NCBI RefSeq assembly: GCF_004322855.1
Contig: NZ_CP036402.1
Coordinates: forward strand, 2,480,001 to 2,544,000
Direction of reading: 5' to 3'
From: Egibacter rhizosphaerae
Lineage (GTDB): Bacteria > Actinomycetota > Nitriliruptoria > Euzebyales > Egibacteraceae
Length of the DNA stretch: 64,000 nt
Shown here: positions 20,095-56,136 of the stretch, in pieces
How positions within the stretch are numbered: the first letter of the stretch is position 1
Layout: each line of letters opens with the position of its first letter
Notes under the pieces: generated by a model
Told to the model about the DNA's origin: nothing
Database searches by the model: none
Seen by the model: the letters and a program-made list of their open reading frames with translations, nothing else
Position numbers and translations under genes: made by a program

Positions 20095-21231
20095 ATGTCG
20101 AACCCGCTCGAACGCGCCGACGCGGGCGGCCTGGCACCGGCGACGGTCGCCGTCGCCGCCGGGCGGCCCCACCAGCCTGGGGATCCCGTGAACCCCCCGG
20201 TGGTCCTGACCTCGATCTACCGCTCCGAGGAGGACGCGCCGCCGGGGTACGCCCGGGAGGGCAATCCCACCTGGACCGCCTTCGAGGAAGCCCTCGGGTC
20301 CCTCGAGGGGGGCGCCGCCGTCGCGTTCGCCTCCGGGATCGCCGCGGTCGACGCCGCGCTCGGGGGCCTGCCCGACGGCGCGGTCGTCGTTGTCCCGGAC
20401 GACGCGTACAGCGGCACGCACGCGCTCGTCGACCACCTCGCCGAGCGCGGCCGGCTGACCCCTCGCGCGGTCGACATCGCCGACACCGAACGGGCGCTCG
20501 CGGCGTGCGACGGCGCGGACGCCCTCTGGGTGGAGTCCCCCACCAACCCGCTCATGGGCGTGGCGGACATCCCCGCACTCGCGGAGGGCGCGCACGCCCG
20601 GGGCTGTCGCGTGGTGGTCGACGCGACCTTCACGACGCCGATGCGGCAACGTGCCCTCGACCAGGGGGCCGACGTCGTCGTGCACAGCGCGACGAAGTTC
20701 CTGTCGGGGCATTCCGACGTGCTGCTCGGCTCGGCGGTGACGCGGGACGTGGATCACCTCGCCCAGTTGCGAGCCCACCGCACGCGGCACGGTGCGGTTC
20801 CGGGGCCGATGGAGGCGTGGCTCGCCCTGCGCGGCCTGCGGACCCTGGGTGTGCGGATCGAGCGGGGGGAGGCCTCGGCCCGCGAGCTGGCCCGCCGGCT
20901 GGCCGCTCATTCGATGGTGCACCGGGTGCGGTATCCGGGCCTGCCCGACGATCCGGGTTATCGGCGGGCGACCGAGCAGCTCGACGGACCGGGCGCGATG
21001 CTGTCGTTCGAGGTCGCCGACGCGGGGACCGCCGACGCTGTCTGCGCCGGTGTCCGGGTGATCGCACACGCGACCAGCCTCGGCGGGGTGGAGACCACGC
21101 TCGAGCGCCGGACCCGCCAGCGCGGCCAGTCGCACCTGCCCGCGGGCCTCGTGCGCGTGAGCGTCGGCTGCGAGGACGTCGAGGATCTCTGGACCGACCT
21201 CGCGCGCGCCCTCGAGGCCGCGGCAGCGTGA
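20095..21231 (+). CDS. Cys/Met-metabolism PLP enzyme (cystathionine gamma-synthase/lyase family)
   Basis: 378 aa, the usual size. The PLP lysine is K201 in HSATKFLSGHSDVLLG. An aromatic and substrate-binding segment YAREGNPTWTAFEEALGSLEGG and the C-terminal ATSLGGVETTLERRTRQRGQ...LPAGLVRVSVGCEDVEDLWTDL region are diagnostic of the trans-sulfuration family. Whether it acts as synthase, lyase or gamma-elimination enzyme cannot be decided from sequence alone. Its 3' end carries a stop-anchored duplication whose second copy supplies the start codon of the next gene. Confidence 0.9.
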   Translation: MSNPLERADAGGLAPATVAVAAGRPHQPGDPVNPPVVLTSIYRSEEDAPPGYAREGNPTWTAFEEALGSLEGGAAVAFASGIAAVDAALGGLPDGAVVVVPDDAYSGTHALVDHLAERGRLTPRAVDIADTERALAACDGADALWVESPTNPLMGVADIPALAEGAHARGCRVVVDATFTTPMRQRALDQGADVVVHSATKFLSGHSDVLLGSAVTRDVDHLAQLRAHRTRHGAVPGPMEAWLALRGLRTLGVRIERGEASARELARRLAAHSMVHRVRYPGLPDDPGYRRATEQLDGPGAMLSFEVADAGTADAVCAGVRVIAHATSLGGVETTLERRTRQRGQSHLPAGLVRVSVGCEDVEDLWTDLARALEAAAA

Positions 21232-21275
21232 GACGCGTGGCGGCGAGGGGCACACCGGCGTGAGGCGCGTGGCGG
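21226..21275 (+). repeat. stop-anchored tandem repeat, 2 copies, period 32
   Basis: The motif GCGTGAGRCGCGTGGCGG occurs at 21226 and again at 21258. In copy 1 its TGA is the stop of the PLP enzyme. In copy 2 the same GTGA supplies the GTG start (21260) of the SGNH hydrolase. This looks like duplication of an ancestral overlapping GTGA stop/start junction. Confidence 0.8.
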
Positions 21276-22081
21276 TCGAAGGAGGCAAGCGCGGAGGGGT
21301 CCGCCGACCGGCGCTCTGGCTCGGGGCGCCGGCCGCGCTGCTGGCCCTGGTCGTCGGGCAGGCCTGGATGACCGCGCGCGAGGAGTACCTCCCGCGGCCG
21401 CCCTACGAGGTGGCACACACCGTGACGCCCGACGGCGAGGTTCGCGCCGGCGCCGACACGGGGCAGGTACGGCTCGCCGTGCTCGGGGACTCGACCGTCG
21501 AGGGGATCGGCTCACCGACTGCCGAGGGCGCGCTGCCGGTGCTCGTCGCCTCCCGCGTCGCCGAGGCGCTGGACCGGACGGTCGGCGTCGTGGGCTTGGG
21601 GGTGTCCGGCGCACGCACCCGCGACGTGCAGCATGACCAGGCGCCCCGTCTCGCTGGGGGGGAGTGGGACGTGGTGCTCGTGGTCGTGGGGTCCAACGAC
21701 GTGACCCACGCCCACGCTCCCTGGCGCATGGCGGAGACGACCCGAAGGATGCTCGAGGAGGTCGAGGCGGCCAGCCGTGCCCCCGTGGTGCTGGGCGGCA
21801 TCCCGGAGTTCCACACGGTGCCGGCTGTGCCGAGGCCCCTGCGGTGGCTGCTCGGCTGGCAGGCCGACCTGCTGCGCGCCCGCCAGGCCGCGGCCGCCCG
21901 CGACGTCGGGGTGCGGTTCGTCGACATCCGGGCCGAGGCCAGCCCCCGCTTCCTCGGCCGGCCCGAGTCCATGAGCGCCGACGGCTTCCACCCCTCGGAC
22001 CTGGGATACGGCCTCTGGGCCGATGCGCTGGCGCCTCAGGTCGCCGACGCGGTCGCGGCGGGTGACACGGCCCCCGAATGA
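21260..22081 (+). CDS. membrane-anchored SGNH/GDSL hydrolase
   Basis: 273 aa, GTG start at 21260. A hydrophobic signal anchor at about 18-38 should place the enzyme outside the membrane. The catalytic motifs are in order: GDSTVEG with nucleophile Ser78, the GSNDVTH block near 145, and DGFHP with Asp241 and His244. This is the fold of exported esterases and acyl hydrolases acting on lipids or cell-wall acetyl groups; substrate unknown. The gene is followed by a perfect 24-bp palindrome and then by the convergent aldolase gene. Confidence 0.85.
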   Translation: MRRVAVEGGKRGGVRRPALWLGAPAALLALVVGQAWMTAREEYLPRPPYEVAHTVTPDGEVRAGADTGQVRLAVLGDSTVEGIGSPTAEGALPVLVASRVAEALDRTVGVVGLGVSGARTRDVQHDQAPRLAGGEWDVVLVVVGSNDVTHAHAPWRMAETTRRMLEEVEAASRAPVVLGGIPEFHTVPAVPRPLRWLLGWQADLLRARQAAAARDVGVRFVDIRAEASPRFLGRPESMSADGFHPSDLGYGLWADALAPQVADAVAAGDTAPE

Positions 22082-22085
22082 TCGC

Positions 22086-22109
22086 GGGGCGGCCCACGTG
22101 GGCCGCCCC
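22086..22109. terminator. 24-bp perfect palindrome between convergent genes
   Basis: GGGGCGGCCCAC followed immediately by its exact complement, 5 bases after the SGNH stop and 22 bases beyond the aldolase stop. The symmetry allows termination in both directions. Confidence 0.75.
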
Positions 22110-22131
22110 GTCGTCCGTGGTGCGCGGCCGT

Positions 22132-23217: not shown

Positions 23218-23656
23218 GTGTCCTCCTGCGTCGCCGTTGCGTCGGGTGCGGGACGTCGGCTCGTCTTTGTCGGTCGTCTGTCGCTGCGGGGTCGCCCGGG
23301 TGGCTGCGGAACCGGGATCGAGCGTGCGCGGTCTCCGGTCTGGGGGCAGTCTGCCCCGCGGGTCAGGGGGGTCAAGCGCGTGCTGCCCCCAACCGTAGGT
23401 CTCCCGGGGTGCTGGTGGGTTGTCACACCGGGTGTGGGTGGTGTCTCGCCGGGGTGTGGGTGGGTGTCTCGTCGAGCGGTGCGGGTTGGCGTCCCCACGT
23501 GTCGGCCGTAGGATCGCGCCGTCTGCTCGCTGCGCGGCGTGCGGCGAGCGCGCCCGCGGTGGGTGGATCCGATGGGTTCGCCGACCTCGCTGCCGGATGC
23601 GGCGAGCGGCGCGGGCCCGTCGGACCCGGACCGTCGATCCGAGCTGGAGGCCCGCC
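23218..23656. other. divergent intergenic region, no gene
   Basis: 439 bp between the divergent starts of the aldolase and the first dodecin gene. I see no supportable gene. It holds an inverted repeat TGGGGGCAG (23341-23349) / CTGCCCCCA (23383-23391) and the G-rich tandem repeat at 23404-23471. Promoters for both genes must lie here but no clear hexamer pair stands out. Confidence 0.6.
23404..23471. repeat. G/T-rich tandem repeat, three imperfect copies
   Basis: Three units of 24, 21 and 23 bp, each beginning CCGGGGTG or CCGGGTG and ending in TGTCACA or TGTCTCG. They lie in the divergent control region, far from any stop codon, and so differ from the stop-anchored arrays. Confidence 0.7.
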
Positions 23657-23860
23657 ATGGCCGTGATCAAGACCATCGACCTCGTGGGCGTGTCGACCGA
23701 GTCGTGGCGGGATGCCGCGCACAAGGCGCTCGCCGAGGCGTCCAAGACGCTCCGCGGTATCGAGGGCTTCGACGTGCTCGAGACCTCCGCGACCGTCCAG
23801 GACAACGAGATCGACGAGTACCACACGCACATCCGCATCCGATTCCGCCTGGAGCGGTAG
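23657..23860 (+). CDS. dodecin 1
   Basis: 67 aa. Typical dodecin: [20 protein letters not shown] helix start, then [36 protein letters not shown], the beta sheet that builds the flavin-binding dodecamer. Dodecins store or buffer flavins in the cytoplasm. A paralogue lies at 57884-58093. The last codons form the first unit of the tandem repeat at 23851-23945. Confidence 0.92.
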
Positions 23861-23945
23861 GCCCGGTGGGAGTGCCGGAGCGGTAGGCCCGGTGGGAGTG
23901 CCGGAGCGGTAGGCCCGGTGGGAGTGCCGGAGCGGTAAGCCGGGG
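23851..23945 (+). repeat. stop-anchored tandem repeat, about 3.5 copies, period 26
   Basis: GGAGCGGTAG, the last two codons and stop of dodecin, recurs at 23851, 23877 and 23903, with a variant ending TAA at 23929. Because 26 is not a multiple of three, the successive stops (23858, 23884, 23910) fall in all three frames. The array ends about 60 bases before the purA start. Confidence 0.92.
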
Positions 23946-24003
23946 GATGATCCGGCACCATGGATGTGGACGTGCGACCGCCGCACACGCGAGGAGCGAG
24001 CCG

Positions 24004-25281: not shown

Positions 25282-25284
25282 CCG

Positions 25285-26571
25285 GTGAAGGTGCTCGTGC
25301 TCGGGGGCGGCGGGCGCGAGCACGCCCTGTGCTGGGCGCTCGACCGTTCCCCCTCGGTGCAGGAGGTCGTCTGCGCGCCCGGCAACCCCGGCATCGCTGA
25401 GGTGGCGGACGTCCGCGCGCTTGACGTGACCGACGACGAGGAGGTCGTGGCGCTCGCCCGGGCACTGGCCGCGGACCTCGTCGTCGTCGGGCCGGAGGCG
25501 CCGCTGGTCGCGGGCGTGGCGGACGCGTTGCGCGGGGCGGGTGTGGCGGTGTTCGGTCCTTCCGCCGATGCGGCGCGGCTCGAGGGCTCGAAAGCGTTCG
25601 CCAAGGAGGTCATGGCTGCCGCGGGGGTGCCGACGGCCCGCTGGTGGACCGGGGACGACGCCGAGGCGGCCCGCGCCGCTCTGGACGAGTTCGCACCGCC
25701 CTACGTGGTGAAGGCGGACGGGCTCGCCGCGGGGAAGGGTGTCGTGATCGCCAGCAGCCGGTCCCAGGCCGAGGACGCCGTCGACGAGGCGCTCGTGACC
25801 GGTGCGTTCGGTGAGGCCGGCCGACGCGTCGTGCTGGAGGAGTTCCTCCAGGGCCCGGAGGTCAGCCTCTTCGGCGTTGCCGACGGGCAGTACGCCCGCG
25901 CGCTCGTCGCGGCGCAGGACTACAAGCGGATCGGCGACGACGACACCGGCCCGAACACCGGCGGGATGGGGGCGTACTCCCCGGTACCCGCGCTCGACGA
26001 CGCGGCGGTCGAGGCACTCGGCGAGGCGATACTCGGTCCGGTGGCCGCGGCTCTCGCCGAGCGCGGCACCCCGTACGTCGGAGTGCTCTACGCAGGGCTG
26101 GTGATGACGCCGGACGGCCCGAAGGTGCTCGAGTTCAACGCGCGCTTCGGCGACCCCGAGGCGCAGGCCTTCCTGCCGCGCCTGCGCGCCGACGGTCCGG
26201 GCGACCTCGGCTTGCTGTTGTCCGCTGCTGCGCGCGGCGATCTTCCCGGTGCACCGCCGCTCGCGTGGGACCGGCGGGCCTGCGCGACGGTGGTGTTGGC
26301 CTCGGCCGGGTATCCGGCCTCCTCCTCCTCGGGGGACCCGATCTCGGGCGTGAGGGAGGCCGCCGCGGTGCCGGACGCGCTGGTGTTCCACGCCGGCACG
26401 GCTGTGGAGGAGGGCGAACTCGTCACCGCGGGCGGGCGGGTGCTCTCCGTCTCGGGTCTGGGGGCGACCGTCGCCCAGGCGCGGGCGATCTCGTATCAGG
26501 CCGCGGACCGGATCTGGTTCGCGGGTCAGCAACGGCGGGAGGACATCGCGGCTCGGCCGCTCGGCGGCTGA
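25285..26571 (+). CDS. purD: phosphoribosylamine-glycine ligase
   Basis: 428 aa with a GTG start ([19 protein letters not shown]). ATP-grasp enzyme with the family segments [38 protein letters not shown], and [16 protein letters not shown], ending in the PurD C-terminal domain ([22 protein letters not shown]). It makes GAR from phosphoribosylamine, glycine and ATP. Co-transcribed with purA. Its 3' end starts a 44-bp duplication. Confidence 0.96.
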
Positions 26572-26651
26572 CCGTGGGATGGTGATCGGGGCCGCCGACG
26601 GTGCGACGCGGCTGACCGTGGGGCGGTGGCCGGCGGGCCGGTTGGCGCCCG
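26564..26651 (+). repeat. stop-anchored repeat after purD, 2 degenerate copies, period 44
   Basis: GCGGCTGACCGTGGG, containing the purD stop, recurs 44 bp downstream (26608), with partial similarity after it (GGTG, GGCCGGCGG). It is the weakest and longest-period member of the stop-anchored set. Confidence 0.6.
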
Positions 26652-28865: not shown

Positions 28866-29288
28866 ATGCGTCTTACCGACCTCGAACCGGGCGCCCCGGG
28901 TCTCGACGCGGCACTGGCGGTGCTGCGCGAGTTGCGACCCGAGCACACTCCCGACTCGGTCGCCGAGCGCTTCGCGGTGCAGCACGCCGAGGGCTACCGG
29001 TTGACCGCCGCCTTCGACGGGGCCACGTGCCTGGGGGTCGCCGGCTGGCGAGTGTTCACCACGTTCGCCGACGGGCGGACGCTGCACCTCGACGATCTGG
29101 TGACCGCCACCCAGGCGCGGTCTGGCGGCGTCGGGGCGCGGCTGCTGCGCCACTTGGAGGAGTGGGCTCGCGCGGACGGGTGTGCGCGCTTGCGGCTCGA
29201 CTCGGGGGTGACCCGGCACGGCGCTCACCGCTTCTACCTGCGGGAGGGATACCGGATCGCCAGCCATCACTTCGAGAAGGACCTCTGA
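28866..29288 (+). CDS. GNAT N-acetyltransferase, small
   Basis: 140 aa, ATG at 28866. GNAT core with HLDDLVTATQARSGGVGARLLRHLEEWARADGCARLRLDSGV and the typical HRFYLREGYRI end. No Shine-Dalgarno; CATGCT eight bases upstream could be a -10 for a leaderless message. Substrate unknown. The last codons begin the tandem array at 29280-29406, which separates this gene from purB. Confidence 0.85.
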   Translation: MRLTDLEPGAPGLDAALAVLRELRPEHTPDSVAERFAVQHAEGYRLTAAFDGATCLGVAGWRVFTTFADGRTLHLDDLVTATQARSGGVGARLLRHLEEWARADGCARLRLDSGVTRHGAHRFYLREGYRIASHHFEKDL

Positions 29289-29406
29289 GTCCCTCGCGGG
29301 TACGACCTGTGCTTTTCCTCGCGGGCACGACCTGTGCTTCTGCCCGCGGGCGGGCGACCTGTGCTCTTGCTCGCGGGCGCGACCTGTGCCTCCGCCCGCG
29401 GGCACA
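29280..29406 (+). repeat. stop-anchored tandem array, 5 copies, period 24-27
   Basis: Units start at 29280, 29304, 29329, 29356 and 29381, each opening GACCTSTG and ending near CGCGGGC. The first unit contains the GNAT stop (GACCTCTGA); in the later copies TGA has become TGC, so only copy 1 terminates. The array fills most of the gap to purB, which starts 57 bases later. Confidence 0.9.
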
Positions 29407-38478: not shown

Positions 38479-39408
38479 ATGTTCGAGCCGACCCGCCCCG
38501 CGGACCCTGCCGAGCTCCCCCGAGTGGTGCGACTCGAGCCCGGCAAGGTTCGCGAGCGGTACGCGGTCGGTGACGACGCGATCCTGCTCGTCGCCAGCGA
38601 CCGGATCAGCGCCTTCGATGTCGTGTTGCCCACGCCCATCCCCGACAAGGGCCGGGTCCTCACCGGGCTCACCGACCACTGGCTCGACGAGCTCGCGGAC
38701 CTGCTGCCCACCCACCGGATCACCTGCGACGTCGCGGCGATGCCCGCGGGGCTCGCGGCGTTCGCCGACGAACTGGAGGGTCGGGCGATGCTCTGCCGGC
38801 AGGCGGCTCCGTTGCCCGTCGAGTGCGTCGCCCGTGGATATCTGGCCGGCTCGGGGTGGGCCGACTACCGCGCCACGGGAACCATCGGCGGCGTGCCGCT
38901 GCCGCCCGGCCTGGTGGAGGCGGCCGAGCTGCCCGAGGCCGTGTTCACGCCGTCCACGAAGGCCCGGGACGAGGGCGCGCACGACGAGAACATCGACCAT
39001 GCCGCCGTGGCCGGGCTCGTCGGTGGGGACCTGGCCGAGCGGCTCGAGACGCTCACGCTGCAGGTCTACGAGCGCCTCGCCGAGCGGGCCCGCGCCGCGG
39101 GCCTCATCCTCGCTGACACGAAGCTCGAGTTCGGCCTGATCGACGGCGAGCTCGTGCTGATCGACGAGGTCGGCACGCCCGACTCGTCGCGCCTGTGGCC
39201 CGAGGCCGAGTGGGAACCCGGCCGCCCGCCACCCTCGTTCGACAAGCAGCCGCTGCGCGACTGGCTGACCTCCAGTGGCTGGGATCGTCGCCCGCCCGGC
39301 CCCGAGCTGCCCGACGAGGTCGTCGCCGCGACGCGCGAACGCTACGTTGCCGCGTACGAGCGGTTGACCGGCCGGCCCTTCTCGGCCTGGGCCGCTCCCG
39401 GGCCCTGA
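38479..39408 (+). CDS. purC: SAICAR synthetase
   Basis: 309 aa. Family segments: GKVRERYAVGDDAILLVASDRISAFD, PVECVARGYLAGSGWADYRATGTIGG, FTPSTKARDEGAHDENI, LILADTKLEFGLIDGELVLIDEVGTPDSSRLW. Condenses CAIR with aspartate using ATP. It starts a run of purine genes (purC, S, Q, L) on this strand. Its stop codon begins a five-unit decaying tandem array. Confidence 0.97.
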   Translation: MFEPTRPADPAELPRVVRLEPGKVRERYAVGDDAILLVASDRISAFDVVLPTPIPDKGRVLTGLTDHWLDELADLLPTHRITCDVAAMPAGLAAFADELEGRAMLCRQAAPLPVECVARGYLAGSGWADYRATGTIGGVPLPPGLVEAAELPEAVFTPSTKARDEGAHDENIDHAAVAGLVGGDLAERLETLTLQVYERLAERARAAGLILADTKLEFGLIDGELVLIDEVGTPDSSRLWPEAEWEPGRPPPSFDKQPLRDWLTSSGWDRRPPGPELPDEVVAATRERYVAAYERLTGRPFSAWAAPGP

Positions 39409-39505
39409 CCGCCGATCCCGAGGCCTGACCGCCGATCCCGAGGCACGACGGCCGATCACGAGGTACGACCCGCCGACCACGAGGCACAACCCGCCGATCG
39501 CGCGA
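39404..39505 (+). repeat. stop-anchored tandem array after purC, 5 copies, period 20
   Basis: CCTGACCGCCGATCCCGAGG, beginning with the last base of the final codon region and the purC TGA, is repeated exactly at 39424. It then decays through units at about 39444, 39464 and 39485 in which TGA has become ACGA or ACAA. Divergence increases with distance from the gene. Confidence 0.9.
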
Positions 39506-39802: not shown

Positions 39803-40602
39803 GCGAGCGGCGCACCCGACCGGCTCGCCGCTTGACCGAGCGGCTCGCGCGCCGGTCCGGCAAGGATCCCTACGAGGGGCTGCCGGTCGACGACGAGCTC
39901 GGGGAACCGATCCTGCCGCGCTGGTTCGTCCTCACCGCGCTGGCCTTCGTGCCTCTGGTCCTCGTCGTCGGCGGCATCGCGTTCCTCGGGTTCGGGACCG
40001 GCCTGCTGGGGGGTGAGGACGTGCCGGCGGCCGAGCGCCGTCCGCCCCCCGAGGGGCCGTATACTACCGGGGTGGGCGAGCTCGTCGCGGGCGAGGCCGA
40101 TCCCGAACGGATCGACGCGCCTTGCTCGGCCGCGGAGGGGCTGCGCGTGGCCGGGACCGAGCAGGACCGGGCAACGCTTTACGGAGCGGTCGACGCGGCC
40201 TGCGACTCCCTGGGCGAGGTCGACGAGCTCGCGGACGGGCTCGAGCCGCTAGCCGATCACGGCGCGATCCTGCGCTTCGCGACGTTCGAGGCGACAGGGG
40301 TCGACGTGACGACCGACCTGGTCTCCGACCCGCCGGTGGTGTACGCGAACGCGCGCTACGCCCAACAGGCCGCCGAGTTGATCGTGCCGCTGCTGGCCCA
40401 CGAGGCGGACCTGCTCCGCGCGGCTGACCGGGGGGACGAGCTCGACGGCGCACGGACCGCGCTCGACGCGCGGGCACGCCAGGCCCGGGCCTGCGAGGCG
40501 GCCCTCGACCGGCCGAGTCGGGCGTGCGAGGACACCGCCGAGCTGCTCGCGCTCGAGCGCGAGGAGGCCGTGGAGCGCCTGCGTGCAGCCGGCTTCCGCT
40601 GA
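39799..40602 (+). CDS. unknown single-span membrane protein within the pur cluster
   Basis: 267 aa; GTG start overlapping the purS stop by four bases (GTGA), so translation is coupled to purS. A basic cytoplasmic N-terminus (about 1-40) precedes one TM segment (about 42-68, WFVLTALAFVPLVLVVGGIAFLGF). The remainder, predicted outside, is helical and acidic with four Cys (in APCSAAEG, AACDSL, ARACEAAL, SRACEDTA). No family recognised. Its place between purS and purQ is curious because those subunits are usually adjacent. Confidence 0.8.
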   Translation: MSERRTRPARRLTERLARRSGKDPYEGLPVDDELGEPILPRWFVLTALAFVPLVLVVGGIAFLGFGTGLLGGEDVPAAERRPPPEGPYTTGVGELVAGEADPERIDAPCSAAEGLRVAGTEQDRATLYGAVDAACDSLGEVDELADGLEPLADHGAILRFATFEATGVDVTTDLVSDPPVVYANARYAQQAAELIVPLLAHEADLLRAADRGDELDGARTALDARARQARACEAALDRPSRACEDTAELLALEREEAVERLRAAGFR

Positions 40603-40669
40603 CCGTCCACACGTCGATCTCCGCTGACCGTCCACACGTCGGCCTCCCCTGACCGTCTGTTCGTCGGCG
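40595..40669 (+). repeat. stop-anchored tandem array, 3 copies, period 25
   Basis: TCCGCTGACCGTCCACACGT, including the gene's TGA, recurs at 40620 and, with changes, at 40645. The TGA is kept in all three units, and as the period is 25 the stops (40600, 40625, 40650) fall in all three frames. purQ begins 17 bases after the array. Confidence 0.92.
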
Positions 40670-40685: not shown

Positions 40686-41378
40686 ATGCGGATCGGCGTC
40701 GTGCAGTTCCCCGGCTCGTGCGACGAGCGCGACGCGGTACGTGCCCTCGTGCTGCTCGGTGCCGAGCCCGTGTTGATCCGCCACGACCACGACCGGCTCG
40801 ATGGCGTCGATGCGGTCGTGTTGCCCGGCGGCTTCACGTACGGGGACTACCTGCGCACGGGTGCCCTGGCGCAGTTCGCCCCGATCATGTCGGCGGTCGC
40901 CGCCTTCGCGGAGCGCGGGGGACGCGTGCTCGGGATCTGCAACGGCTTCCAGGTGCTGTGCGAGGCGGGGCTCCTGCCCGGCGCGCTCGTGCGCAACGTG
41001 GGGCTGCGATTCGTGCACCGTCGGCAGCCCGTCCGGGTCGAGCGCACCGGTCCGTGGCTCGCGGCGCCGACTGGTGCGGTGCTCGAGCTGCCCATCAAGC
41101 ACGGCGAGGGCCGTTACGTGGTCGACGATCCCGACGGCCTGGCCGCATCGGGGCAGGTGTTGCTCCGCTACTGCGACGCCGACGGGGCCGTCACCGACGC
41201 CGCGAACCCGAACGGCTCGGTGCGGGGGATCGCTGGCGTCACCAACCGCGGCGGCAACGTCGCCGGCCTCATGCCCCACCCCGAGCACGCCGTCGAGGCC
41301 CTGCTCGGCCCGACCGACGGGAGGGCCGTCCTCGGGACGGTGGGCACTCCCGGGAGCGTGCGGGCCGGCGCCGGGTAG
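40686..41378 (+). CDS. purQ: FGAM synthase glutaminase subunit PurQ
   Basis: 230 aa, class I glutamine amidotransferase. Nucleophile Cys85 in GICNGFQVL, catalytic His/Glu in LMPHPEHAVE, and the N-terminal GVVQFPGSCDERDAV. Feeds ammonia to PurL with PurS as linker. Its own stop is the first of four in-frame TAG codons in the following array. Confidence 0.96.
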   Translation: MRIGVVQFPGSCDERDAVRALVLLGAEPVLIRHDHDRLDGVDAVVLPGGFTYGDYLRTGALAQFAPIMSAVAAFAERGGRVLGICNGFQVLCEAGLLPGALVRNVGLRFVHRRQPVRVERTGPWLAAPTGAVLELPIKHGEGRYVVDDPDGLAASGQVLLRYCDADGAVTDAANPNGSVRGIAGVTNRGGNVAGLMPHPEHAVEALLGPTDGRAVLGTVGTPGSVRAGAG

Positions 41379-41446
41379 TGCCCCGGGTTCCGGTAGTGCC
41401 CCGGGGTCGGGTAGTGCTCCGGGGTCGGGTAGTGCTCCGGGGTGGG
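41371..41446 (+). repeat. stop-anchored tandem array after purQ, 4 copies, period 18
   Basis: GGTAGTGCYCCGGGGT-like units place TAG at 41376, 41394, 41412 and 41430. The period is exactly six codons, so all four stops are in the purQ frame. The array ends 17 bases before the 3' end of the small convergent gene. Confidence 0.93.
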
Positions 41447-41462
41447 TCTCAGCGCCGCGTCG

Positions 41463-44820: not shown

Positions 44821-46302
44821 ATGGCCGCGACCACGGGCGCCCGTGACGAGTGCGGCGTGGTGGCGGTCAGCGCGCCCGGCGAGGAGGTGGCGCGCCTCTG
44901 CTACTACGCGCTCTACGCGCTGCAGCACCGCGGGCAGGAGTCGGCCGGCATCGCGGTGTCCGAGGGCGCGCGGCTGCTCGTGTCCCGCGAGATGGGGTTG
45001 GTGAGCCAGGCGTTCGACGAGGCCCGCCTCGCCGGCCTGCCCGGTGATCGCGGGATCGGGCACGTGCGGTACTCCACCAGCGGGACGTCGAGCTGGGACA
45101 ACGCCCAGCCCGCGTTCACGGTGGCGGGCAGCGGCGCCGGCGTGGCGCTCGCGCACAACGGCAACCTCACGAACACCGAGGCGCTCGCCGGCTCCGGGGG
45201 TCGCACGCGGGCGTGCGGCACCGACTCCCAGCTGCTCGCGACACTGCTCGCCGAGCGCCTCGACGAGGGGGGGCTCGAGGCGGCCACGGCCGACGTCTGC
45301 TCGGAGGCGATGGGCGCCTACTCGCTGGTCGCGCTCACCGAGGACGCGATCGTCGGGGCCCGCGATCCTCACGGGGTTCGACCGCTGGTGGTCGGCAGGC
45401 TGCCAGCCGGCGGGTACGTGCTGGCGAGCGAGACGGTCGCCCTCGACATCCTCGGCGCGCATCTCATCCGCGAGGTCGCGCCCGGCGAGGTCGTGACCGT
45501 CGACCGTCACGGACTGCGGACGCGCCGGTTCGCGTCCGCCCACCCCGCGTTCTGTGCCTTCGAGTACGTCTACCTCGCGCGGCCCGACCACGTGGAGCCG
45601 GCCGCCGACGGGTCGACGACGAGCGTGGCCGCCGCGCGCCGGCGGCTCGGGCAGGCGCTGGCCGAGGAGGCCCCTGCCGACGCCGACCTCGTCGTCCCCG
45701 TTCCGGACTCGGGCACGGCCGCCGCGGCCGGCTACGCGCAGGCCTCGGGCATCCCGTACGCCGAGGGCCTCGTGAAGAACCGCTACGTCGGCCGCACGTT
45801 CATCGAACCCAGCCCGTCGCTGCGCCAACTCGGGGTGCGTCTGAAGCTGAACCCGCTGCGCGACGTGATCGCCGGGCAGCGGCTCGTGGTGGTCGACGAT
45901 TCGATCGTGCGGGGCAACACCAGCCGTCAACTCATGGCGATGCTGCGCGAGGCCGGGGCACGCGAGATCCACCTGCGGGTGACGTCCCCGCCGATCCGCC
46001 ATCCCTGCTTCTACGGCGTCGACATGGCCACCCCGACCGAGCTGATCGGCTCGGGGCTCACCATCGACGAGATCCGGGCCTTCGTCGGGGCGGACTCGCT
46101 CGCCTACCTCCCCCAGGAACGGCTGGTCGAGGCCACGCGTCGTCCCGGCGACGCGCTCTGCACGGCCTGCTTCGACGGGCGGTACCCGATCCCGATCCCC
46201 GACGAGCCGGCCCTCGCCCAAGCCAGCCTGTTCACCGACCTGTCGCCTGGGACGTCCGTGGCCGCGCCGGCGCCCCCGCACGTGGAAGGCAGCGACGCGT
46301 GA
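44821..46302 (+). CDS. purF: glutamine-PRPP amidotransferase
   Basis: 493 aa. Class II (Ntn) amidotransferase: the nucleophile is Cys11 (DECGVVAV), so a ten-residue propeptide must be removed, as in the iron-sulfur PurF class. The PRPP loop VVVDDSIVRGNTSRQL lies near 355-370 and a C-terminal CTACFDGRYPIPIP supplies further cluster cysteines. First committed step of purine synthesis. Its stop overlaps the purM start. Confidence 0.97.
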   Translation: MAATTGARDECGVVAVSAPGEEVARLCYYALYALQHRGQESAGIAVSEGARLLVSREMGLVSQAFDEARLAGLPGDRGIGHVRYSTSGTSSWDNAQPAFTVAGSGAGVALAHNGNLTNTEALAGSGGRTRACGTDSQLLATLLAERLDEGGLEAATADVCSEAMGAYSLVALTEDAIVGARDPHGVRPLVVGRLPAGGYVLASETVALDILGAHLIREVAPGEVVTVDRHGLRTRRFASAHPAFCAFEYVYLARPDHVEPAADGSTTSVAAARRRLGQALAEEAPADADLVVPVPDSGTAAAAGYAQASGIPYAEGLVKNRYVGRTFIEPSPSLRQLGVRLKLNPLRDVIAGQRLVVVDDSIVRGNTSRQLMAMLREAGAREIHLRVTSPPIRHPCFYGVDMATPTELIGSGLTIDEIRAFVGADSLAYLPQERLVEATRRPGDALCTACFDGRYPIPIPDEPALAQASLFTDLSPGTSVAAPAPPHVEGSDA

Positions 46303-47363
46303 GCGGCCCGCGGTCCGGTCGCGAGGGGATCACGTACCGCGACGCCGGGGTCGACCTCGAGGTGGCCGACGCGGTGGCCGAGCGTGCCGGACACCACGCT
46401 CGCCGCGCCACCCGCCCCGAGGTGGTGGACAGCGCCAGTGGGTTCGCGGGTCTCTTCGCACTCGATCGCGACCGGTACGCCGATCCGCTGTTGGTCGCGT
46501 CCTGCGACGGGGTGGGGACCAAGCTCGAGCTTGCCCACGCCGTCGGCCGTCACGACACCGTGGGAGTCGACCTCGTCGCGATGGTCGTCGACGATCTCGT
46601 CTGCACCGGGGCCGAGCCGCTGCTGTTCCTCGACTACGTCGCCGCGGGCGAGCTGTCCCCCGATGTTGTGGACGAGCTGCTCGCGGGCATCGCCGACGGC
46701 TGCGTCCAGGCGGGCTGTGCGCTGCTCGGAGGCGAGTCCGCCGCACACCCCGGCGTGCTGCCGAGCGACCGGTACGACCTCGCCGGTTTCGGGGTCGGCG
46801 TCGTGGAGCGTGCGGAGGCGCTCGAGCCGGCCCGCGTGCGCTCGGGCGACGCCGTCGTCGCGATGGCGTCGACGGGGCTGCACAGCAACGGCTACAGCCT
46901 GGCGCGGCGCGTGGTCGATGCCGCGGGACTGGCCCTGGCCTCCGACCACGGGCTCAAGGTGCAGACCTTGGGGGACGCGTTGCTGCGCCCGACCCGGATC
47001 TACGCGCCGGACTGCCTCGCGCTGCTCGGCGAGACCCCCGTCCACGCCCTCTGCCACGTGACCGGCGGGGGCGTGCCCGGCAACCTCGCGCGCGTGCTGC
47101 CCGACGGCCACGGCGCCCTGGTGGACACGACGACGTTCGCGGTCCCCGGCGTGTTCGGGGTGCTCGCCGAGCACGGGCCCATCGCGCCCGAGGAGATGTG
47201 GCGCGTGTTCAACATGGGCGCCGGCATGCTCGCTGTCGTGCCCGACGGCGCGGCGGCGGTCGACGTGCTGCGCGCCCGCGGCGTCGACGCCTGGGAGTGC
47301 GGCGAGGTCCGTGCGGGCGCGGAGGGTGTGGAGCTCGCGGGTCTCACCGCGCCGGGTGCCTAG
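46299..47363 (+). CDS. purM: AIR synthetase
   Basis: 354 aa; GTG start overlapping the purF stop (GTGA). Motifs: ITYRDAGVDLEVADA, VASCDGVGTKLELAHAVGRHDTVGVDLVAMVVDD, GCALLGGESAAHPG, YSLARRVVDAAG, HVTGGGVPGNLARVLPDG. Closes the imidazole ring (FGAM to AIR). Its stop lies in the first unit of an array shared with the convergent dehydrogenase gene. Confidence 0.96.
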   Translation: MSGPRSGREGITYRDAGVDLEVADAVAERAGHHARRATRPEVVDSASGFAGLFALDRDRYADPLLVASCDGVGTKLELAHAVGRHDTVGVDLVAMVVDDLVCTGAEPLLFLDYVAAGELSPDVVDELLAGIADGCVQAGCALLGGESAAHPGVLPSDRYDLAGFGVGVVERAEALEPARVRSGDAVVAMASTGLHSNGYSLARRVVDAAGLALASDHGLKVQTLGDALLRPTRIYAPDCLALLGETPVHALCHVTGGGVPGNLARVLPDGHGALVDTTTFAVPGVFGVLAEHGPIAPEEMWRVFNMGAGMLAVVPDGAAAVDVLRARGVDAWECGEVRAGAEGVELAGLTAPGA

Positions 47364-47386
47364 TCGCGCAGTCGCAGGCCGGGTGC

Positions 47387-47406
<20 letters not shown>
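47351..47406. repeat. stop-anchored repeat shared by purM and the convergent dehydrogenase, period 27
   Basis: GCCGGGTGCCTAGTCGCG occurs at 47351 and 47378, with a third partial copy GCCGGGTAGCC at 47396. The self-complementary CTAG makes TAG on both strands. In copy 1 it stops purM (47361-47363); in copy 2 it stops the dehydrogenase (complement of 47387-47389). Confidence 0.9.
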
Positions 47407-49055: not shown

Positions 49056-49076
49056 TCCTCGTTCGTTCGCGCGCTG

Positions 49077-50669: not shown

Positions 50670-50819
50670 GGTGGCTCGCACGTGGAGAGGCGGTCAGGTC
50701 CCCCGACCCGAACGACCCGGTCCGGGCCGCCGCGCTGCTCGCGCACGGCCTCCGCGAGTCTGCCGAGCCGGACCGACCCGGGGCACCCTCCCCGCTCGCC
50801 CCGCCGGACGAGGCGACAG

Positions 50820-50854
50820 CCGTTGGGGGAGGGCCCAAGGCCCTCCCCCAACGG
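50820..50854 (-). terminator. hairpin terminator, 16-bp perfect stem
   Basis: Arms 50820-50835 and 50839-50854 are fully complementary around a CAA loop, 28 bases beyond the stop of the betaine-binding protein. No T-run. Confidence 0.8.
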
Positions 50855-50881
50855 GTCGGTGCGTGTACGGTCGTGGACCGC

Positions 50882-51907
50882 CTAGCGGCCGAGCCACTCG
50901 TCGACGAGGTCCTCGTTCTCATCGACCCACTCGGCGGCGCCTTCCTGCTCGTTGCCCTCGCCGGCCTCCTCGATCGTGGCCTGCAGGGCACCCATGTCGT
51001 CGGAGCCGATCGAGAAGTTCTCGAGCCACTCCGCGACCTCGGGCATGTCCTCGCTGAAGCCGGGCCGTGCGACCCCGTGGAGTTCCTCGCCCTCGCCCCA
51101 GGCGCCCTCGGGGTCCTCCAGGATGTGGAGGTCCTTGTCGGCGTACTCAGGGTGCGGCGTCCACAGCGTGACGACGATCGGCTCCTCGTTGTCGTACGCG
51201 GTCTCGAGCTCAGCGCGCATCGCGGAGGTCGAGGAGTCGATGAGGTCGAACTCCTCGTCGAGGCCGTAAGTGGGCATGACCTCCTCGTCGAGGGTCTGCA
51301 TCATCCCGGCACCAGCTTCGATGCCGGTGATCTCCCCACCGAAGAGGTCGGGGTTCTCCGCGAGGTCCTCGTGCGAGCAGACGCCCTCGTCCTCGCACAC
51401 GTACTCCGGCACGGTCAGCTCGACCGTGGCGGGGTCGTCGAACCAGACGCCGAGCTCCTCGAGCTCGTCGCCGAACTCCTCCTCGTAGTCGGCGTGGGTG
51501 GTCGGGAGCCACATGTCGAGGAAGACGTCCTCGTCGCCCCCGGCAACGGCGGCGAAGGTCGGCGCGACGTCGTACTGCTCCTCGCTGGCCTCGTAACCCT
51601 CACGCTCGAGGATCTCGACCCAGAGGAAGGTGTTCGCGATGTTCTCCTCCCAGGGGATCCACGCGAACGAGACCTCGCCGTTGGCCGGCTCCTCGGCCTC
51701 CTCCTCGTCGGGCTCTTCCTCTTCGTCCTCGTCGGGGTCCTCGTCGGGCTCTTCCTCTTCGTCCTCGTCGGGGTCCTCGTCGGGCTCTTCCTCTTCCTCC
51801 TCGTCGGGCTCATCGTCAGGGTCGTCTGCCACGTCCTCCTCACAGGCTGCGACCAGCAGCATCAGTGCGGCGAGCAACGACAGGAACAAGAGCGGCTTGT
51901 TTCTGAT
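50882..51907 (-). CDS. glycine-betaine/proline-betaine ABC substrate-binding lipoprotein (OpuAC type)
   Basis: OpuAC-like binding protein: VSFAWIPWEENIANTFLWVEILEREGY, the DVFLDMWLPTTHADYEEEF box, LWTPHPEYADKDLHILEDPEGAWGEGEELHGVARPGF. A lipobox (LMLLVAAC) is followed by an extreme acidic linker built of EEEEPDEDPDED repeats. No ATG, GTG or TTG gives a proper signal peptide: the only standard in-frame start is TTG at 51889, which lacks positive charge and a ribosome-binding site. An ATC at 51907, after AAAGGAAGTGAGGAG, yields (M)RNKPLLFLSLLAALMLLVAAC. I use that as the probable non-canonical start (341 aa). Confidence 0.8.
   Translation of the reverse strand: MRNKPLLFLSLLAALMLLVAACEEDVADDPDDEPDEEEEEEPDEDPDEDEEEEPDEDPDEDEEEEPDEEEAEEPANGEVSFAWIPWEENIANTFLWVEILEREGYEASEEQYDVAPTFAAVAGGDEDVFLDMWLPTTHADYEEEFGDELEELGVWFDDPATVELTVPEYVCEDEGVCSHEDLAENPDLFGGEITGIEAGAGMMQTLDEEVMPTYGLDEEFDLIDSSTSAMRAELETAYDNEEPIVVTLWTPHPEYADKDLHILEDPEGAWGEGEELHGVARPGFSEDMPEVAEWLENFSIGSDDMGALQATIEEAGEGNEQEGAAEWVDENEDLVDEWLGR
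51700..51800 (-). repeat. 36-bp coding repeat in the acidic linker
   Basis: The 36-bp unit containing TCGGGCTCTTCCTCTTC starts at 51708, 51744 and 51780 (last copy partial) and encodes 12-residue EEEEPDEDPDED blocks. In-frame period allows linker length changes. Confidence 0.88.
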
Positions 51908-52064
51908 GGCTCCTCACTTCCTTTCATCTCACGGCGATCCTACACAGGGGGACAGTGAACCCCGCCCCTCGTGAGTCGACGGTAACGCACTGGACGCGGC
52001 CCTGCTATCGGGCTCGTTGGAATCGTGCCCTCAGCGCGCATCGCTGAACCTCGGCCATCACCGG

Positions 52065-52934: not shown

Positions 52935-54180
52935 TGGGGGCCCCTTCCGGTTCGACCGCGCCGCTGGGTGCAGTCCCCTCTCCGCTGTTGGTCTGGTGCT
53001 CGGCCGGGGTCGTGAGGGACGACAACAGCAGCGCGCGGGGCAGGACGCCGACGAGCTCCCCGGCATCGTCGACGACCGCCACCGGCAGCTCCTGGTTGGC
53101 CGCGATCTCGAGCACGTCCGACAGTGCGGTGTCCGGTGAGACGACCTCGTATTCGGTGTGAACGACCCCTTCGAGGGTGGCGTCACCGCGGTTCGCGGCC
53201 TCCGCGAGGTCCTGGTCGCGGACCGCACCCACGAGCTTCCGGCCATGGTCGACGACGTAGAGTCCCTGGGCCTGGCGCTCGCGCAGCTGGAGCATGCCGA
53301 CCTTGGGGCCGTGTCGCGGAGAGAGCGTCTCGATGGGATCGACCGCGACGGTCCCGGCGGTGAGGATCCGAGAGCGGTCGACGTCCTGGATGAAATCCGC
53401 GACGTAGTCGTTCGCGGGGTTGTTCAGGATCTTCTCGGGCTCGTCGTTCTGGACGATCGCCCCGGCCTTCATTACCGCGATCCGGTCACCGAGGCGCATG
53501 GCCTCGTTCAGGTCGTGCGTGATGAAGATGATCGTCTTCTGGAGAGTGCTCTGCAGCTCGAGCAGCTGACCCTGGATGTCCCGCCGGATCAGCGGATCGA
53601 GCGCGCTGAACGGCTCGTCCATGAGCATGATGTCCGCGTCGGTCGCGAGGGCGCGGGCCAGACCGACTCGCTGGCGCATCCCGCCCGACAGCTGGTGCGG
53701 CTTGCGCTCTCCCCAGCCCTCGAGACCGACCATCTCGAGGGCCTCGTTGGCGCGTCGATCCCGCTCCTCACGGTCGATCCGGCGCACCTCGAGCCCATAG
53801 CCGACGTTCTCGAGGACGGTGCGGTGCGGGAACAGCGCGAAGCTCTGGAACACCATGCTGATGCGGCGGGACCGCAGATCGCGCAGGTCGTGATCGTTCA
53901 GGCTCGCGATATCGGTGCCGTCGATCTCGCACGTGCCGGCGGTCGCGTCGAGCAGGCGGTTCACCATCCGCACGAGGGTCGACTTGCCGGAGCCGGACAG
54001 GCCCATCACGACGAAGAGCTGGCCCGGTTCCACGGTGAAGGTCGCGTCGACGACAGCAGCGAACTGGCCGGTCCTCTCGTAGACCTCGTCGCGATCCTCG
54101 CCCGCCTGCAACGGCTCCACGGCGCGCTCGGGGTGGGACCCGAACACCTTGAAGAGCCCGTTGGCTCTGATCGCACTCAT
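52924..54180 (-). CDS. glycine-betaine ABC transporter ATPase with CBS domains
   Basis: 418 aa, ATG at 54180 after AAGGTGACGAGT. Walker A GLSGSGKST at 60-68, Q-loop FQSFALFPHRTV, signature LSGGMRQRVGLARAL, Walker B IMLMDEPFSALDP, and HDLNEAMRLGDR. The C-terminal third holds two CBS modules (about 290-390), which in OpuA sense ionic strength. A conserved insertion (RAVEPLQAGEDRDEVYERTGQ) before the first strand is characteristic of ProV/OpuAA. Confidence 0.95.
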   Translation of the reverse strand: MSAIRANGLFKVFGSHPERAVEPLQAGEDRDEVYERTGQFAAVVDATFTVEPGQLFVVMGLSGSGKSTLVRMVNRLLDATAGTCEIDGTDIASLNDHDLRDLRSRRISMVFQSFALFPHRTVLENVGYGLEVRRIDREERDRRANEALEMVGLEGWGERKPHQLSGGMRQRVGLARALATDADIMLMDEPFSALDPLIRRDIQGQLLELQSTLQKTIIFITHDLNEAMRLGDRIAVMKAGAIVQNDEPEKILNNPANDYVADFIQDVDRSRILTAGTVAVDPIETLSPRHGPKVGMLQLRERQAQGLYVVDHGRKLVGAVRDQDLAEAANRGDATLEGVVHTEYEVVSPDTALSDVLEIAANQELPVAVVDDAGELVGVLPRALLLSSLTTPAEHQTNSGEGTAPSGAVEPEGAPSAQ

Positions 54181-54490
54181 ACTCGTCACCTTGATCGTTG
54201 GGTCGCCCGCCGACGTGGCCCGTGCCGCGGTCCTTGGCCGAACCACAGCGCGCAGCGGCCCACGGCGGCGCGAAAGCTCGAGTTCGCGTGGTCCCGCGAA
54301 CCCAGGGCGCACGGCTCCCAGATGTTGAGTGTAACCATCTTGCCTGGTCCATGATGCGGAGCGCGCGTCGGTCCGTCGACGCATCGGCGTTGCGCGGCGT
54401 CGAAGGGCACGGGCCCGCGGGCGGCCGAGCGTGGCCGGTCGACGCTGCCCGCGGGCAAGAGGAGGGTGCAGTGCGGCAACAGGACCGGCG
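54181..54490. other. divergent region between betaine ATPase and Pit genes, no gene
   Basis: 310 bp. No supportable coding sequence. An AT-richer island near 54321-54345 contains, on the minus strand, GGTTACACT (complement of 54328-54336), an extended -10-like element that could serve the betaine operon. GAGGAGGGTGCAGTG near 54460 precedes the Pit gene. Confidence 0.4.
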
Positions 54491-55447
54491 GTGACCGACC
54501 CGCTCGGGCTCGTCTTCCTGGTGGCTGCGCTCGGCTTCGTGGTCCTGAACGGCGTCAACGATGGGGGCGCCCTGGTCGCCGCATCGCTGAAGACCCCGGT
54601 GCTGCGCCCGCTCACCGTCATCGGGCTGATCTGCGCGACCCTGGCGCTGGTCCCCGCGCTCGGGGCCGCCGCGGTCGCGGGGACCCTGGCCGACGGCCTC
54701 GTCCCTGCTGACCCCTCGACCCGTCGGACGTTGCTGGCCGCCGGGTTGGCGGCCTGTCTGCTGGTCGTCGGGCTCTTGAACCGCAGAGGCCTGCCGACGA
54801 GCCTCACCCTCGCGCTCGTCGGCGGTGTTGTCGGCGCCGGCGTCGGGGCGGGGGAGAGCGTGGAGTGGTCCCGGGTCGGTGTCGTCGTGTTGGTCGGGAT
54901 CGCGGCGCCGTTCGTCGGCGGTGCCCTCGGGTTGGCGCTGCGCGGGCTCGGGGCGATCCCGAGATCGAGGGTGCGCAGCGCGCACGTCGTGACCGTGGCC
55001 GGTCAGGCGCTCGCCTACGCGGCCAACGACGGGCAGAAGACCTATGCGGCCATGGCGGCCGCGACGCTGGCGCCGGTGGGGGCAGGTGTGGCGCCGCCGG
55101 TGTGGATGCTCGTCGTCGTGCCGGTGCTCTTCGGCGTGGGTGCGGCGCTCGGCGTACGGCGAGCGCGCGGGACCCTCGCGGGAGGTGGGGTCCTGCGCAC
55201 CCGCCCTCGCGACGAGGTCGCCGCGGAGGCCGCCTCGGCGGTCGCGGTGCTCGGCAGCTCCGCGGTCGGCGCGCCGGTCAGCATGACGCAATCGATCGTC
55301 GGCTCCCTGGTGGGTGCGGGCCTCACGCGCGGGCGGCGGCACGTGCGCTGGCGAGCTGCGGGGCGGCTGGTGCTCGCGTGGGTGCTGACGCTGCCCTCCA
55401 GCGCGCTGGCGGGTGTCGTGCTGGGCGCGATGCTGGGGCTCCTCTGA
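54491..55447 (+). CDS. Pit-family inorganic phosphate transporter
   Basis: 318 aa from the GTG at 54491. About ten hydrophobic segments and the two PiT signature loops, in shortened form: VVLNGVNDGGALVAASLKT near the start and AYAANDGQKTYAAMAAATL in the middle. Short compared with E. coli PitA (about 500 aa) but normal for the compact bacterial and archaeal class that pairs with a DUF47 protein, which follows 16 bases later. Low-affinity phosphate or divalent metal-phosphate import. Confidence 0.9.
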   Translation: MTDPLGLVFLVAALGFVVLNGVNDGGALVAASLKTPVLRPLTVIGLICATLALVPALGAAAVAGTLADGLVPADPSTRRTLLAAGLAACLLVVGLLNRRGLPTSLTLALVGGVVGAGVGAGESVEWSRVGVVVLVGIAAPFVGGALGLALRGLGAIPRSRVRSAHVVTVAGQALAYAANDGQKTYAAMAAATLAPVGAGVAPPVWMLVVVPVLFGVGAALGVRRARGTLAGGGVLRTRPRDEVAAEAASAVAVLGSSAVGAPVSMTQSIVGSLVGAGLTRGRRHVRWRAAGRLVLAWVLTLPSSALAGVVLGAMLGLL

Positions 55448-55463
55448 CGGGAAGGGACGAGCG

Positions 55464-56099
55464 ATGAGGTGGCTGCGCACGCTGCTGCGTGATCTGACGG
55501 GGCGACGCGACGGCGAGTTCGTCGGGATGCTGCAGGGCCAGGTCGACTGCGGGATCTCGGCGGCCGCGTGGCTCCGGGACGCGGCTGCGGGCGACACGGG
55601 CCTCGACGAGGCCCTCGCGGAGGTGCGCCGGGTCGAGGCCGAGGCCGACCGGACACGGGACACCCTCGTGGCGGAGCTGAACCGGTCGCTCACGACGCCG
55701 CTCGACCGTGAGGACCTGATGCGCCTGTCGCGGGCGCTCGACAACGTCGTCGACAACCTGCGGGACCTGGCGGATACACTCGACGCATTCCGGGTGAGTG
55801 ACCCGAGCGGTTGTGTTCGGCCCCTCGACGAGCTCTGGGCGGGGCTCAACGCGCTGCATGCCGTGATCGGGCAGCTCGACGGGGGGTCGATCGCGGGACT
55901 GGCGGCCGCGGCGCGAGACGCGAAACGGGTCAGCCGGGTGCGCGTCGCTTTCGTGGAGGGGCTGCGGGAGCTGTTCACCGAGCCGGTCACCGGTGACGTG
56001 CTGGCCCGACGCGAGTTGCTGCGGCGCCTCGACGTGGTCGGGCTGCGCCTGGGGGAGGCCTGCGACGCGCTCGCCGACGCGGCCCTCAAGCGCGCGTAG
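55464..56099 (+). CDS. DUF47/PhoU-like partner of the Pit transporter
   Basis: 211 aa, ATG at 55464 after GGAAGGGACGAGCG. All-helical PhoU-like protein: VEAEADRTRDTLVAELNRSLTTPLDREDLMRLSRALDNVVDNLRDLADTL is the DUF47 signature. Such proteins regulate the neighbouring Pit transporter. Its last codons begin a 24-bp tandem duplication. Confidence 0.92.
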   Translation: MRWLRTLLRDLTGRRDGEFVGMLQGQVDCGISAAAWLRDAAAGDTGLDEALAEVRRVEAEADRTRDTLVAELNRSLTTPLDREDLMRLSRALDNVVDNLRDLADTLDAFRVSDPSGCVRPLDELWAGLNALHAVIGQLDGGSIAGLAAAARDAKRVSRVRVAFVEGLRELFTEPVTGDVLARRELLRRLDVVGLRLGEACDALADAALKRA

Positions 56100-56136
56100 C
56101 CGACCGCCCGCAAGCGCGCGTAGCCGACCGCCCGCC
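56087..56136 (+). repeat. stop-anchored tandem repeat, 2 exact copies, period 24
   Basis: Lys-Arg-Ala-stop plus 12 more bases (unit begins AAGCGCGCGTAGCCGACC at 56088) is repeated exactly from 56112. The period is eight codons, so the second TAG is in frame with the first. Confidence 0.92.

What the first reader, a model, noticed from the sequence alone, without database searches (positions are those of the whole stretch)
21226..56136. Stop-anchored tandem repeats: nine gene ends whose last codons and stop are tandemly multiplied
Directly visible: at 21226, 23851, 26564, 29280, 39404, 40595, 41371, 47351 and 56087 a tandem array of 2-5 units (period 18-44 bp) begins one to four codons before a stop codon, so the stop lies inside the unit. 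Unit sequences are unrelated between loci; each is a copy of its own gene's tail. None begins well inside an intergenic region. Eight of nine lie between 21 and 47 kb, mostly between purine genes. Known relatives are the MIRU elements of mycobacteria, which sit at stop/start junctions, but those are one dispersed family; here every locus has its own unit. This suggests a lineage-specific process that repeatedly duplicates gene ends, perhaps replication slippage or ribosome/transcription-linked repair, or selection for structured, stop-rich spacers.
Basis: partly seen in the sequence, partly recalled or inferred. Interest (0 to 1): 0.85.

Follow-up and report, generated by a model that had tools for sequence, protein, structure and literature searches.

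The report
Gene-junction tandem duplications in a bacterium
Short stretches of DNA where one gene ends and the next begins have been copied in tandem; this looks like ordinary duplication that survives there because it breaks neither gene, and in some places it pulls apart two genes that used to overlap.

Summary
The repeats are real: eight of the nine listed loci carry a tandem copy spanning the stop codon, far above chance; at 29280 only the later copies are convincing. Units are private to each locus. "Stop-anchored" fails as a rule. In 1.254 Mb (27%) of this genome, 66 of 96 non-coding arrays touch neither stop nor start; stop-spanning arrays match uniform placement (25 seen, 23.4 expected), while start codons are avoided (5 against 15.2). 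A mild excess of array edges just after stops remains (11 against 4.6). Relatives show how arrays form: tight or overlapping junctions are tandemly duplicated, copy 1 keeping the upstream stop and the last copy the downstream start or opposing stop. Two window junctions fit to the base: GTGA overlap (-4) plus a 32-bp unit gives +28; CTAG overlap (-4) plus a 27-bp unit gives +23. In one related genus the purF-purM junction has one, two or about three copies. Best reading: ordinary short tandem duplication filtered by selection, which can separate overlapping genes in one step. Unexplained: the window is locally enriched.

The parts
21226..21275 (+). Two-copy 32-bp junction duplication. Copy 1 (21226-21243) holds the TGA of the Cys/Met PLP enzyme gene; copy 2 (21258-21275) holds the GTG start (21260) of the GDSL hydrolase gene.
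   Evidence: Spacer +28 = -4 + 32. Relatives G009 and G018 have the same gene pair meeting at GTGA (start ambiguous in G018).
23399..23471 (.). Counter-example: 23-bp x3.3 array in the divergent region between a DeoC-family gene and dodecin, not at a stop codon.
23851..23941 (+). 26-bp x3.5 array spanning the dodecin stop (23858-23860), upstream of purA.
   Evidence: Pfam Dodecin and Adenylsucc_synt
26564..26622 (+). Two copies, 44 bp apart (26564-26578, 26608-26622), the first spanning the purD stop (26569-26571).
   Evidence: Pfam GARS
29280..29403 (+). About 25-bp x4.3 array (TRF 29295-29403) between a GNAT gene and purB; the first unit, over the TGA, is diverged.
   Evidence: Pfam
39391..39499 (+). 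About 20-bp repeat array (TRF also gives 40 bp x2.7) spanning the purC stop (39406-39408), inside the 142-bp purC-purS spacer.
   Evidence: 17 relatives with a readable purC-purS junction have -25 to +37 bp and no array
40590..40657 (+). 25-bp x2.7 array spanning the stop of the gene 39832-40602 (no Pfam match), upstream of purQ.
41371..41447 (+). 18-bp x4.3 array spanning the purQ stop (41376-41378).
47351..47395 (.). 27-bp duplication at the convergent purM | ELFV-dehydrogenase junction. Copy 1 holds the purM TAG (47361-47363); copy 2 holds the opposing TAG (47387-47389, - strand).
   Evidence: Gap +23 = -4 + 27; G011 and G012 share stops at CTAG (gap -4).
56066..56135 (+). 24-bp x2.9 array spanning the stop (56097-56099) of a PhoU_div (DUF47) gene; convergent junction.
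46299..46302 (+). Unduplicated 4-bp GTGA overlap of the purF stop and purM start; the corresponding junction is tripled in relative G016.

Best explanation
These are ordinary short tandem duplications, about 15-50 bp, that happen throughout the chromosome and are filtered by selection. A duplication that contains the end of a gene is harmless: the first copy keeps the last codons and the stop, and the extra copies fall downstream as non-coding DNA. Where the next gene starts close by or overlaps, the last copy keeps its start codon (or, for convergent genes, the opposing stop), so both proteins survive and the genes move apart by one unit length. Duplications over start codons are mostly removed, and those inside genes survive almost only in multiples of three. 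Later slippage adds copies and drift makes them diverge. Shown here: the selection pattern, single-copy junctions in relatives, copy-number differences inside one genus, and exact arithmetic at two window junctions. Inferred: the molecular step (polymerase slippage or end-joining with little homology), the order of later copy gains, and any effect on expression.
For: Placement null on 90 of 95 arrays: stop-spanning 25 vs 23.4 expected, start-spanning 5 vs 15.2. Duplication profile flat at 2.1-2.4% from -10 to +49 around stops and about 0.2-0.3% just past starts. Direct rate: 28 of 1064 gene ends vs 4 of 1066 gene starts here; 7 of 409 vs 1 of 419 in G032. Period divisible by three in 136 of 140 coding arrays but 10 of 24 stop-spanning and 19 of 66 intergenic. 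purC-purS: 17 relatives with a readable junction have -25 to +37 bp and no array; here 142 bp with the array. purM|dehydrogenase: -4 with CTAG in G011 and G012, +23 here with a 27-bp unit. GDSL junction: GTGA (-4) in G009 and probably G018, +28 here with a 32-bp unit. purF-purM in genus g18: one copy, spacer 20 (G023); two exact 43-bp copies, spacer 63 (G025); 2.8 copies, spacer 98 (G027); the fourth member, G021, lacks the unit; G016 triples its GTGA junction. purQ-purL in genus g10: no array in G018, 30-bp x2.1 in G009. Overlap-resolving register: 4 of 534 pairs at 70% identity, control 0.3; looser cut 8 vs 2.2.
Against: Array edges 0-8 bp after a stop are in excess (11 vs 4.6, P about 0.005), and edges from -45 to +8 together are 36 vs 27.9 (P about 0.014); in the window alone stop-spanning is 5 vs 2.3 (P about 0.02). 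With pre-expansion spacers as the null, stop-spanning arrays are somewhat above expectation (13 vs 10.1 or 7.2 of the 34 same-strand arrays in spacers up to 400 bp). The window is a local hot spot (9 of 54 vs 19 of 1015) that the model does not explain. G039 (2 of 358 vs 1 of 362) and G029 (1 of 188 vs 1 of 190) show little or no stop/start asymmetry; G032 (0 of 201) and G039 (0 of 184) have no overlap-resolving pair and G029 has 1 of 96. Array density is higher here than in the four relatives sampled in long stretches. Only 2 of 17 relatives with a convergent dehydrogenase have the CTAG overlap, so the ancestral state there is inferred. No genome of the same species was available. Several relatives are draft assemblies in which exact copies could be miscounted.
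Confidence: 0.85

Rival explanations
1. A dedicated process acts at gene ends (linked to transcription termination, ribosome release or repair) and duplicates tails around stop codons.
For: The window has 9 of 54 gene ends duplicated. Array edges just after stops are in excess, 11 vs 4.6.
Against: No genome-wide excess of stop-spanning arrays (25 vs 23.4); plateau rather than peak at the stop; 66 of 96 arrays touch neither stop nor start.
Confidence: 0.07
2. The arrays are selected as functional spacers: terminators, stop-rich insulators or expression tuners between operon genes.
For: In M. tuberculosis, repeat length upstream of fpg1 was reported to correlate with fpg1 expression (PMC2734929, abstract and passages). 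A review reports 3- to 10-fold weaker translational coupling as spacing rises to about +40 nt, though one study it cites saw no change up to +25 nt (PMC12548453, passages).
Against: Stop-spanning arrays are less structured than arrays of shuffled units (mean z +0.99, 0 of 23 below -2). Units are unrelated. None of the 17 relatives with a readable purC-purS junction has an array there.
Confidence: 0.06
3. A mobile, MIRU-like element family inserts at start/stop junctions.
For: Some junctions are NTGA overlaps; MIRUs are reported to insert at start codons so that -4 spacing is kept (PMC12548453, passage).
Against: No shared unit: 3 similar unit pairs of 4465 vs 5 shuffled. Units at several junctions are copies of local sequence that is single-copy in a relative.
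Confidence: 0.01
4. Assembly artefact.
For: Exact copies in draft relatives could be stutter.
Against: The window lies in a single 4,637,169-bp contig; the TRF-detected window arrays at these loci have diverged copies (matches 78-98%).
Confidence: 0.01

Closest known systems
M. tuberculosis complex rnc-fpg1 tandem repeats (ETR-F / VNTR3239)
   Same: A junction of 1-54 bp in the other mycobacteria listed is expanded to 279-358 bp by tandem repeats, with six repeat patterns among 32 isolates (PMC2734929, section 16 read).
   Different: That array starts 40 bp after the stop and does not include it; here the units at eight listed loci include the stop, and in two cases the second copy carries the neighbour's start or opposing stop.
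MIRU (mycobacterial interspersed repetitive units)
   Same: Sit at start/stop junctions with -4 spacing kept (PMC12548453, passage).
   Different: MIRUs are described as one dispersed, apparently mobile family; here each unit is a copy of local DNA.
Bacterial VNTR loci in general
   Same: Short tandem copies in non-coding DNA; coding ones have periods in multiples of three.
   Different: Variation between strains of this species was not testable.
TAACTGA heptamer repeats of Beggiatoaceae
   Same: Direct repeats with stop codons, 13 sets overlapping the stop of an upstream gene (PMC4679880, passages).
   Different: One shared heptamer, mostly just upstream of start codons; here private units of 18-52 bp.

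Membership tests
MIRU | One homologous unit dispersed at many loci | tested here: not met
   3 of 4465 unit pairs similar vs 5 shuffled; 24 of 95 units with a match elsewhere vs 13 of 95 shuffled
MIRU | Located at start/stop junctions (NTGA) | tested here: inconclusive
   A small minority: 4 of 534 same-strand pairs at 70% identity in the overlap register, control 0.3
Bacterial tandem repeat / VNTR locus | Head-to-tail copies above chance | tested here: met
   95 arrays at score 60 or more vs 0 in each of three simulations of 178 kb intergenic sequence
Bacterial tandem repeat / VNTR locus | Copy number differs between strains of one species | not testable with these tools
   No second genome of the species; between species of one genus 1, 2.0 and 2.8 copies at purF-purM
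Structured terminator array | Folds better than matched controls | tested here: not met
   Stop-spanning arrays: mean z +0.99, 0 of 23 below -2
Known structured RNA family | Match to an Rfam model | tested here: not met
   0 matches in the window at gathering thresholds

The most novel reading that the evidence does not exclude
Tandem duplication of a start/stop overlap is a general one-step route by which bacteria lose gene overlap and translational coupling without harming either protein. The copy number of the resulting array then sets the distance, and so the coupling strength, between operon neighbours.
Probability: 0.35. Interest if true: 0.6.

Novelty: new member of a known kind. Interest (0 to 1): 0.4.

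Why it matters
Loss of gene overlap seems little modelled. One paper says published work on overlapping pairs covered their creation, not their loss, and proposes moving start or stop codons as the route (PMC4161906, passages). Junction duplication is a simpler route that leaves a readable scar, and here the arithmetic fits to the base at two junctions. The case also warns that repeats which look 'anchored' to stop codons can arise from survivorship alone.

Tried and rejected
Shared or mobile unit family: rejected. RNA structure or terminators: rejected for stop-spanning arrays; 13 of 64 other arrays had z below -2 and were not followed up. Rfam: no match. Microhomology: among 18 two-copy arrays of high identity the longest exact run exceeded the period by 0-2 nt in 6 and by 7 in one; in the other 11 it was shorter than the period (internal mismatches, or a run one base short), so no clear signature. 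Ku/end-joining as the cause: Ku is present here but no match was found in G009, which has a 97%-identical array, so it is not required. Missing MutS as the cause: no MutS_V match here, but also none in G026, which had no non-coding array in 100 kb. Origin proximity: GC skew flips near 2.1-2.25 Mb, about 0.3 Mb from the window, but the rest of the 494-kb context has 7 of the listed hits, a rate like the remaining sample. Purine genes as a general hot spot: 131 relatives' loci around the query genes and their paralogues (470 kb) have 27 non-coding arrays, 4 spanning a stop and 2 both a stop and a start, no enrichment over this genome's sample.

Data set aside. One of the 95 arrays is a CRISPR array: it was left out and of the array-density bins; it and four other arrays in intergenic regions over 1000 bp fell outside the null. 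One search also left out arrays with period over 60 or length over 200. In one search, of 29 relatives' purC loci, 17 gave a readable purC-purS gap, 3 (L004, L007, L011) were set aside because the script overshot the stop, and 9 had no purS match after purC; the two most negative gaps kept (L009 -13, L016 -25) may also be overshoots. In one search, 17 relatives had a convergent dehydrogenase; 2 had the CTAG overlap and the others ranged from -167 to +1195, some negative values possibly overshoots. In one search I examined 19 of the relatives' 29 loci: 2 had the two genes adjacent, 6 had the GDSL match starting 676-950 bp after the stop, 10 had no upstream match and 1 upstream match was spurious. 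Genes were called by my own codon-usage script, so start positions are approximate.

Literature: nine searches of open-access papers; no listing showed this mechanism for overlap loss. For listed papers I saw titles and the start of abstracts; passages of PMC12548453, PMC2734929, PMC4679880, PMC4161906 and PMC3843671, and one section of PMC2734929.

Full report
The window lies in a single 4,637,169-bp contig, at 2,480,001-2,544,000. The two best named matches of the purC search are MAGs of Nitriliruptorales and Nitriliruptoraceae (62% and 56% identity), so the organism is probably a member or neighbour of that group; that search says the own record may be left out, so this is inference. The region holds dodecin, purA, purD, purB, purC, purS, purQ, purL, purF and purM (Pfam domains).

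The repeats are real. Eight of the nine listed loci carry a copy spanning the stop codon that no simulated site matched: 0 of 1500 reached score 12, and the eight score 15-62. At 29280 the unit over the stop is diverged and only the later units are convincing. The claim that none begins inside an intergenic region fails at 23399-23471.

Is the stop codon special? I sampled 1.254 Mb of this genome. Of 96 non-coding arrays (TRF score 60 or more, period 10 or more), 24 overlap a stop, 6 a start and 66 neither. For 90 of the 95 arrays that could be given flanking genes, random placement in the same intergenic region plus 45 bp of flank gave 23.4 stop-spanning against 25 seen, and 15.2 start-spanning against 5 seen. 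The rate of local duplication is flat from -10 to +49 of stops, and falls about fivefold from upstream DNA to just past start codons. So stops are tolerated and starts are protected. Periods are multiples of three in 136 of 140 coding arrays but only 10 of 24 stop-spanning arrays, so the extra copies are not held in frame. One deviation remains: array edges lie 0-8 bp after a stop more often than expected (11 vs 4.6), which makes edges from -45 to +8 together 36 vs 27.9 (P about 0.014). A possible cause, by inference, is that the first copy is held by coding constraint while the others drift, so the detected edge retreats to the stop, as at 29280.

Array density is 7.7 non-coding arrays per 100 kb here. 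It is 8.4 in 11 loci (214 kb) of named actinobacteria, 3.4 in 20 other loci of 62% GC or more and 1.4 in 11 loci of 55-62% GC. In long stretches of relatives it is 4.5 in G029 (200 kb) and 0 in G026 (100 kb), 5.8 in G032 (29 arrays in 500 kb) and 3.3 in G039 (13 in 400 kb). So this genome is within the actinobacterial range but at the top among the sampled relatives.

How the arrays form can be read from relatives. At purC-purS, 17 relatives with a readable junction have gaps from -25 to +37 bp and no array; this genome has 142 bp, most of it the array. At purM and its convergent dehydrogenase neighbour, G011 and G012 have stops overlapping at CTAG (gap -4); this genome has a 27-bp duplication and a gap of +23, which is -4 + 27. 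At the GDSL junction, the two relatives with the same direct adjacency meet at GTGA (-4; start ambiguous in G018); this genome has a 32-bp duplication and a spacer of +28, which is -4 + 32. Copy 1 holds the upstream stop and copy 2 the downstream start. At purF-purM this genome keeps the GTGA overlap, while G016 has tripled it. In another genus the same junction has one copy (G023, spacer 20), two exact 43-bp copies (G025, spacer 63 = 20 + 43) and 2.8 copies (G027, spacer 98); the fourth member sampled, G021, lacks the unit. At purQ-purL, G009 has an array that its genus-mate G018 lacks.

A systematic search for this overlap-resolving register found 4 of 534 same-strand pairs at 70% identity against 0.3 in shifted registers, and 8 against 2.2 at a looser cut. 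It was not seen in G032 (0 of 201) or G039 (0 of 184), and once in G029 (1 of 96). It is therefore supported here but not shown to be general. The stop/start asymmetry itself is seen here (28 of 1064 vs 4 of 1066) and in G032 (7 of 409 vs 1 of 419), hardly in G039 (2 of 358 vs 1 of 362) and not in G029 (1 of 188 vs 1 of 190).

Other explanations were tested. Units form no family. Stop-spanning arrays are not unusually structured. Neither Ku nor missing MutS tracks simply with the arrays.

What stays unexplained is the local concentration: 9 of 54 gene ends in the window against 19 of 1015 elsewhere in the sample (p=3.6e-6, post hoc; one array in each group counted from both sides), with 20-kb bins overdispersed (variance/mean 2.2). 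Tight operon spacing explains why arrays there include stops, not why there are so many.

The nearest published case read here is the rnc-fpg1 junction of the M. tuberculosis complex: 1-54 bp in the other mycobacteria listed and 279-358 bp of repeats in the complex (PMC2734929). The finding is thus a known kind of event with several documented examples; the part that may be new is its role in separating overlapping genes, and nine literature searches showed no description of it in their listings.

Noticed in passing
L083:7905 to about 11100 (own genome, from about 1,907,905): A CRISPR array with a 37-bp repeat, about 42-45 copies and spacers of about 36 bp; a 218-bp block of three repeat-spacer units is exactly duplicated (8196-8413 and 8414-8631).
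   Followed up: partly
window 51702-51817: A 36-bp x3.2 repeat inside the predicted minus-strand gene 50882-51889; the period is a multiple of three.
   Followed up: no
own genome, about 2.1-2.25 Mb: GC skew changes from negative to positive here, suggesting the replication origin is about 0.3 Mb from the window.
   Followed up: partly
own genome, 2593-2601 kb: A second local cluster of stop-spanning duplications (four gene ends in 8 kb).
   Followed up: partly
own genome: Ku (PF02735) is present and no MutS_V (PF00488) match was found.
   Followed up: partly
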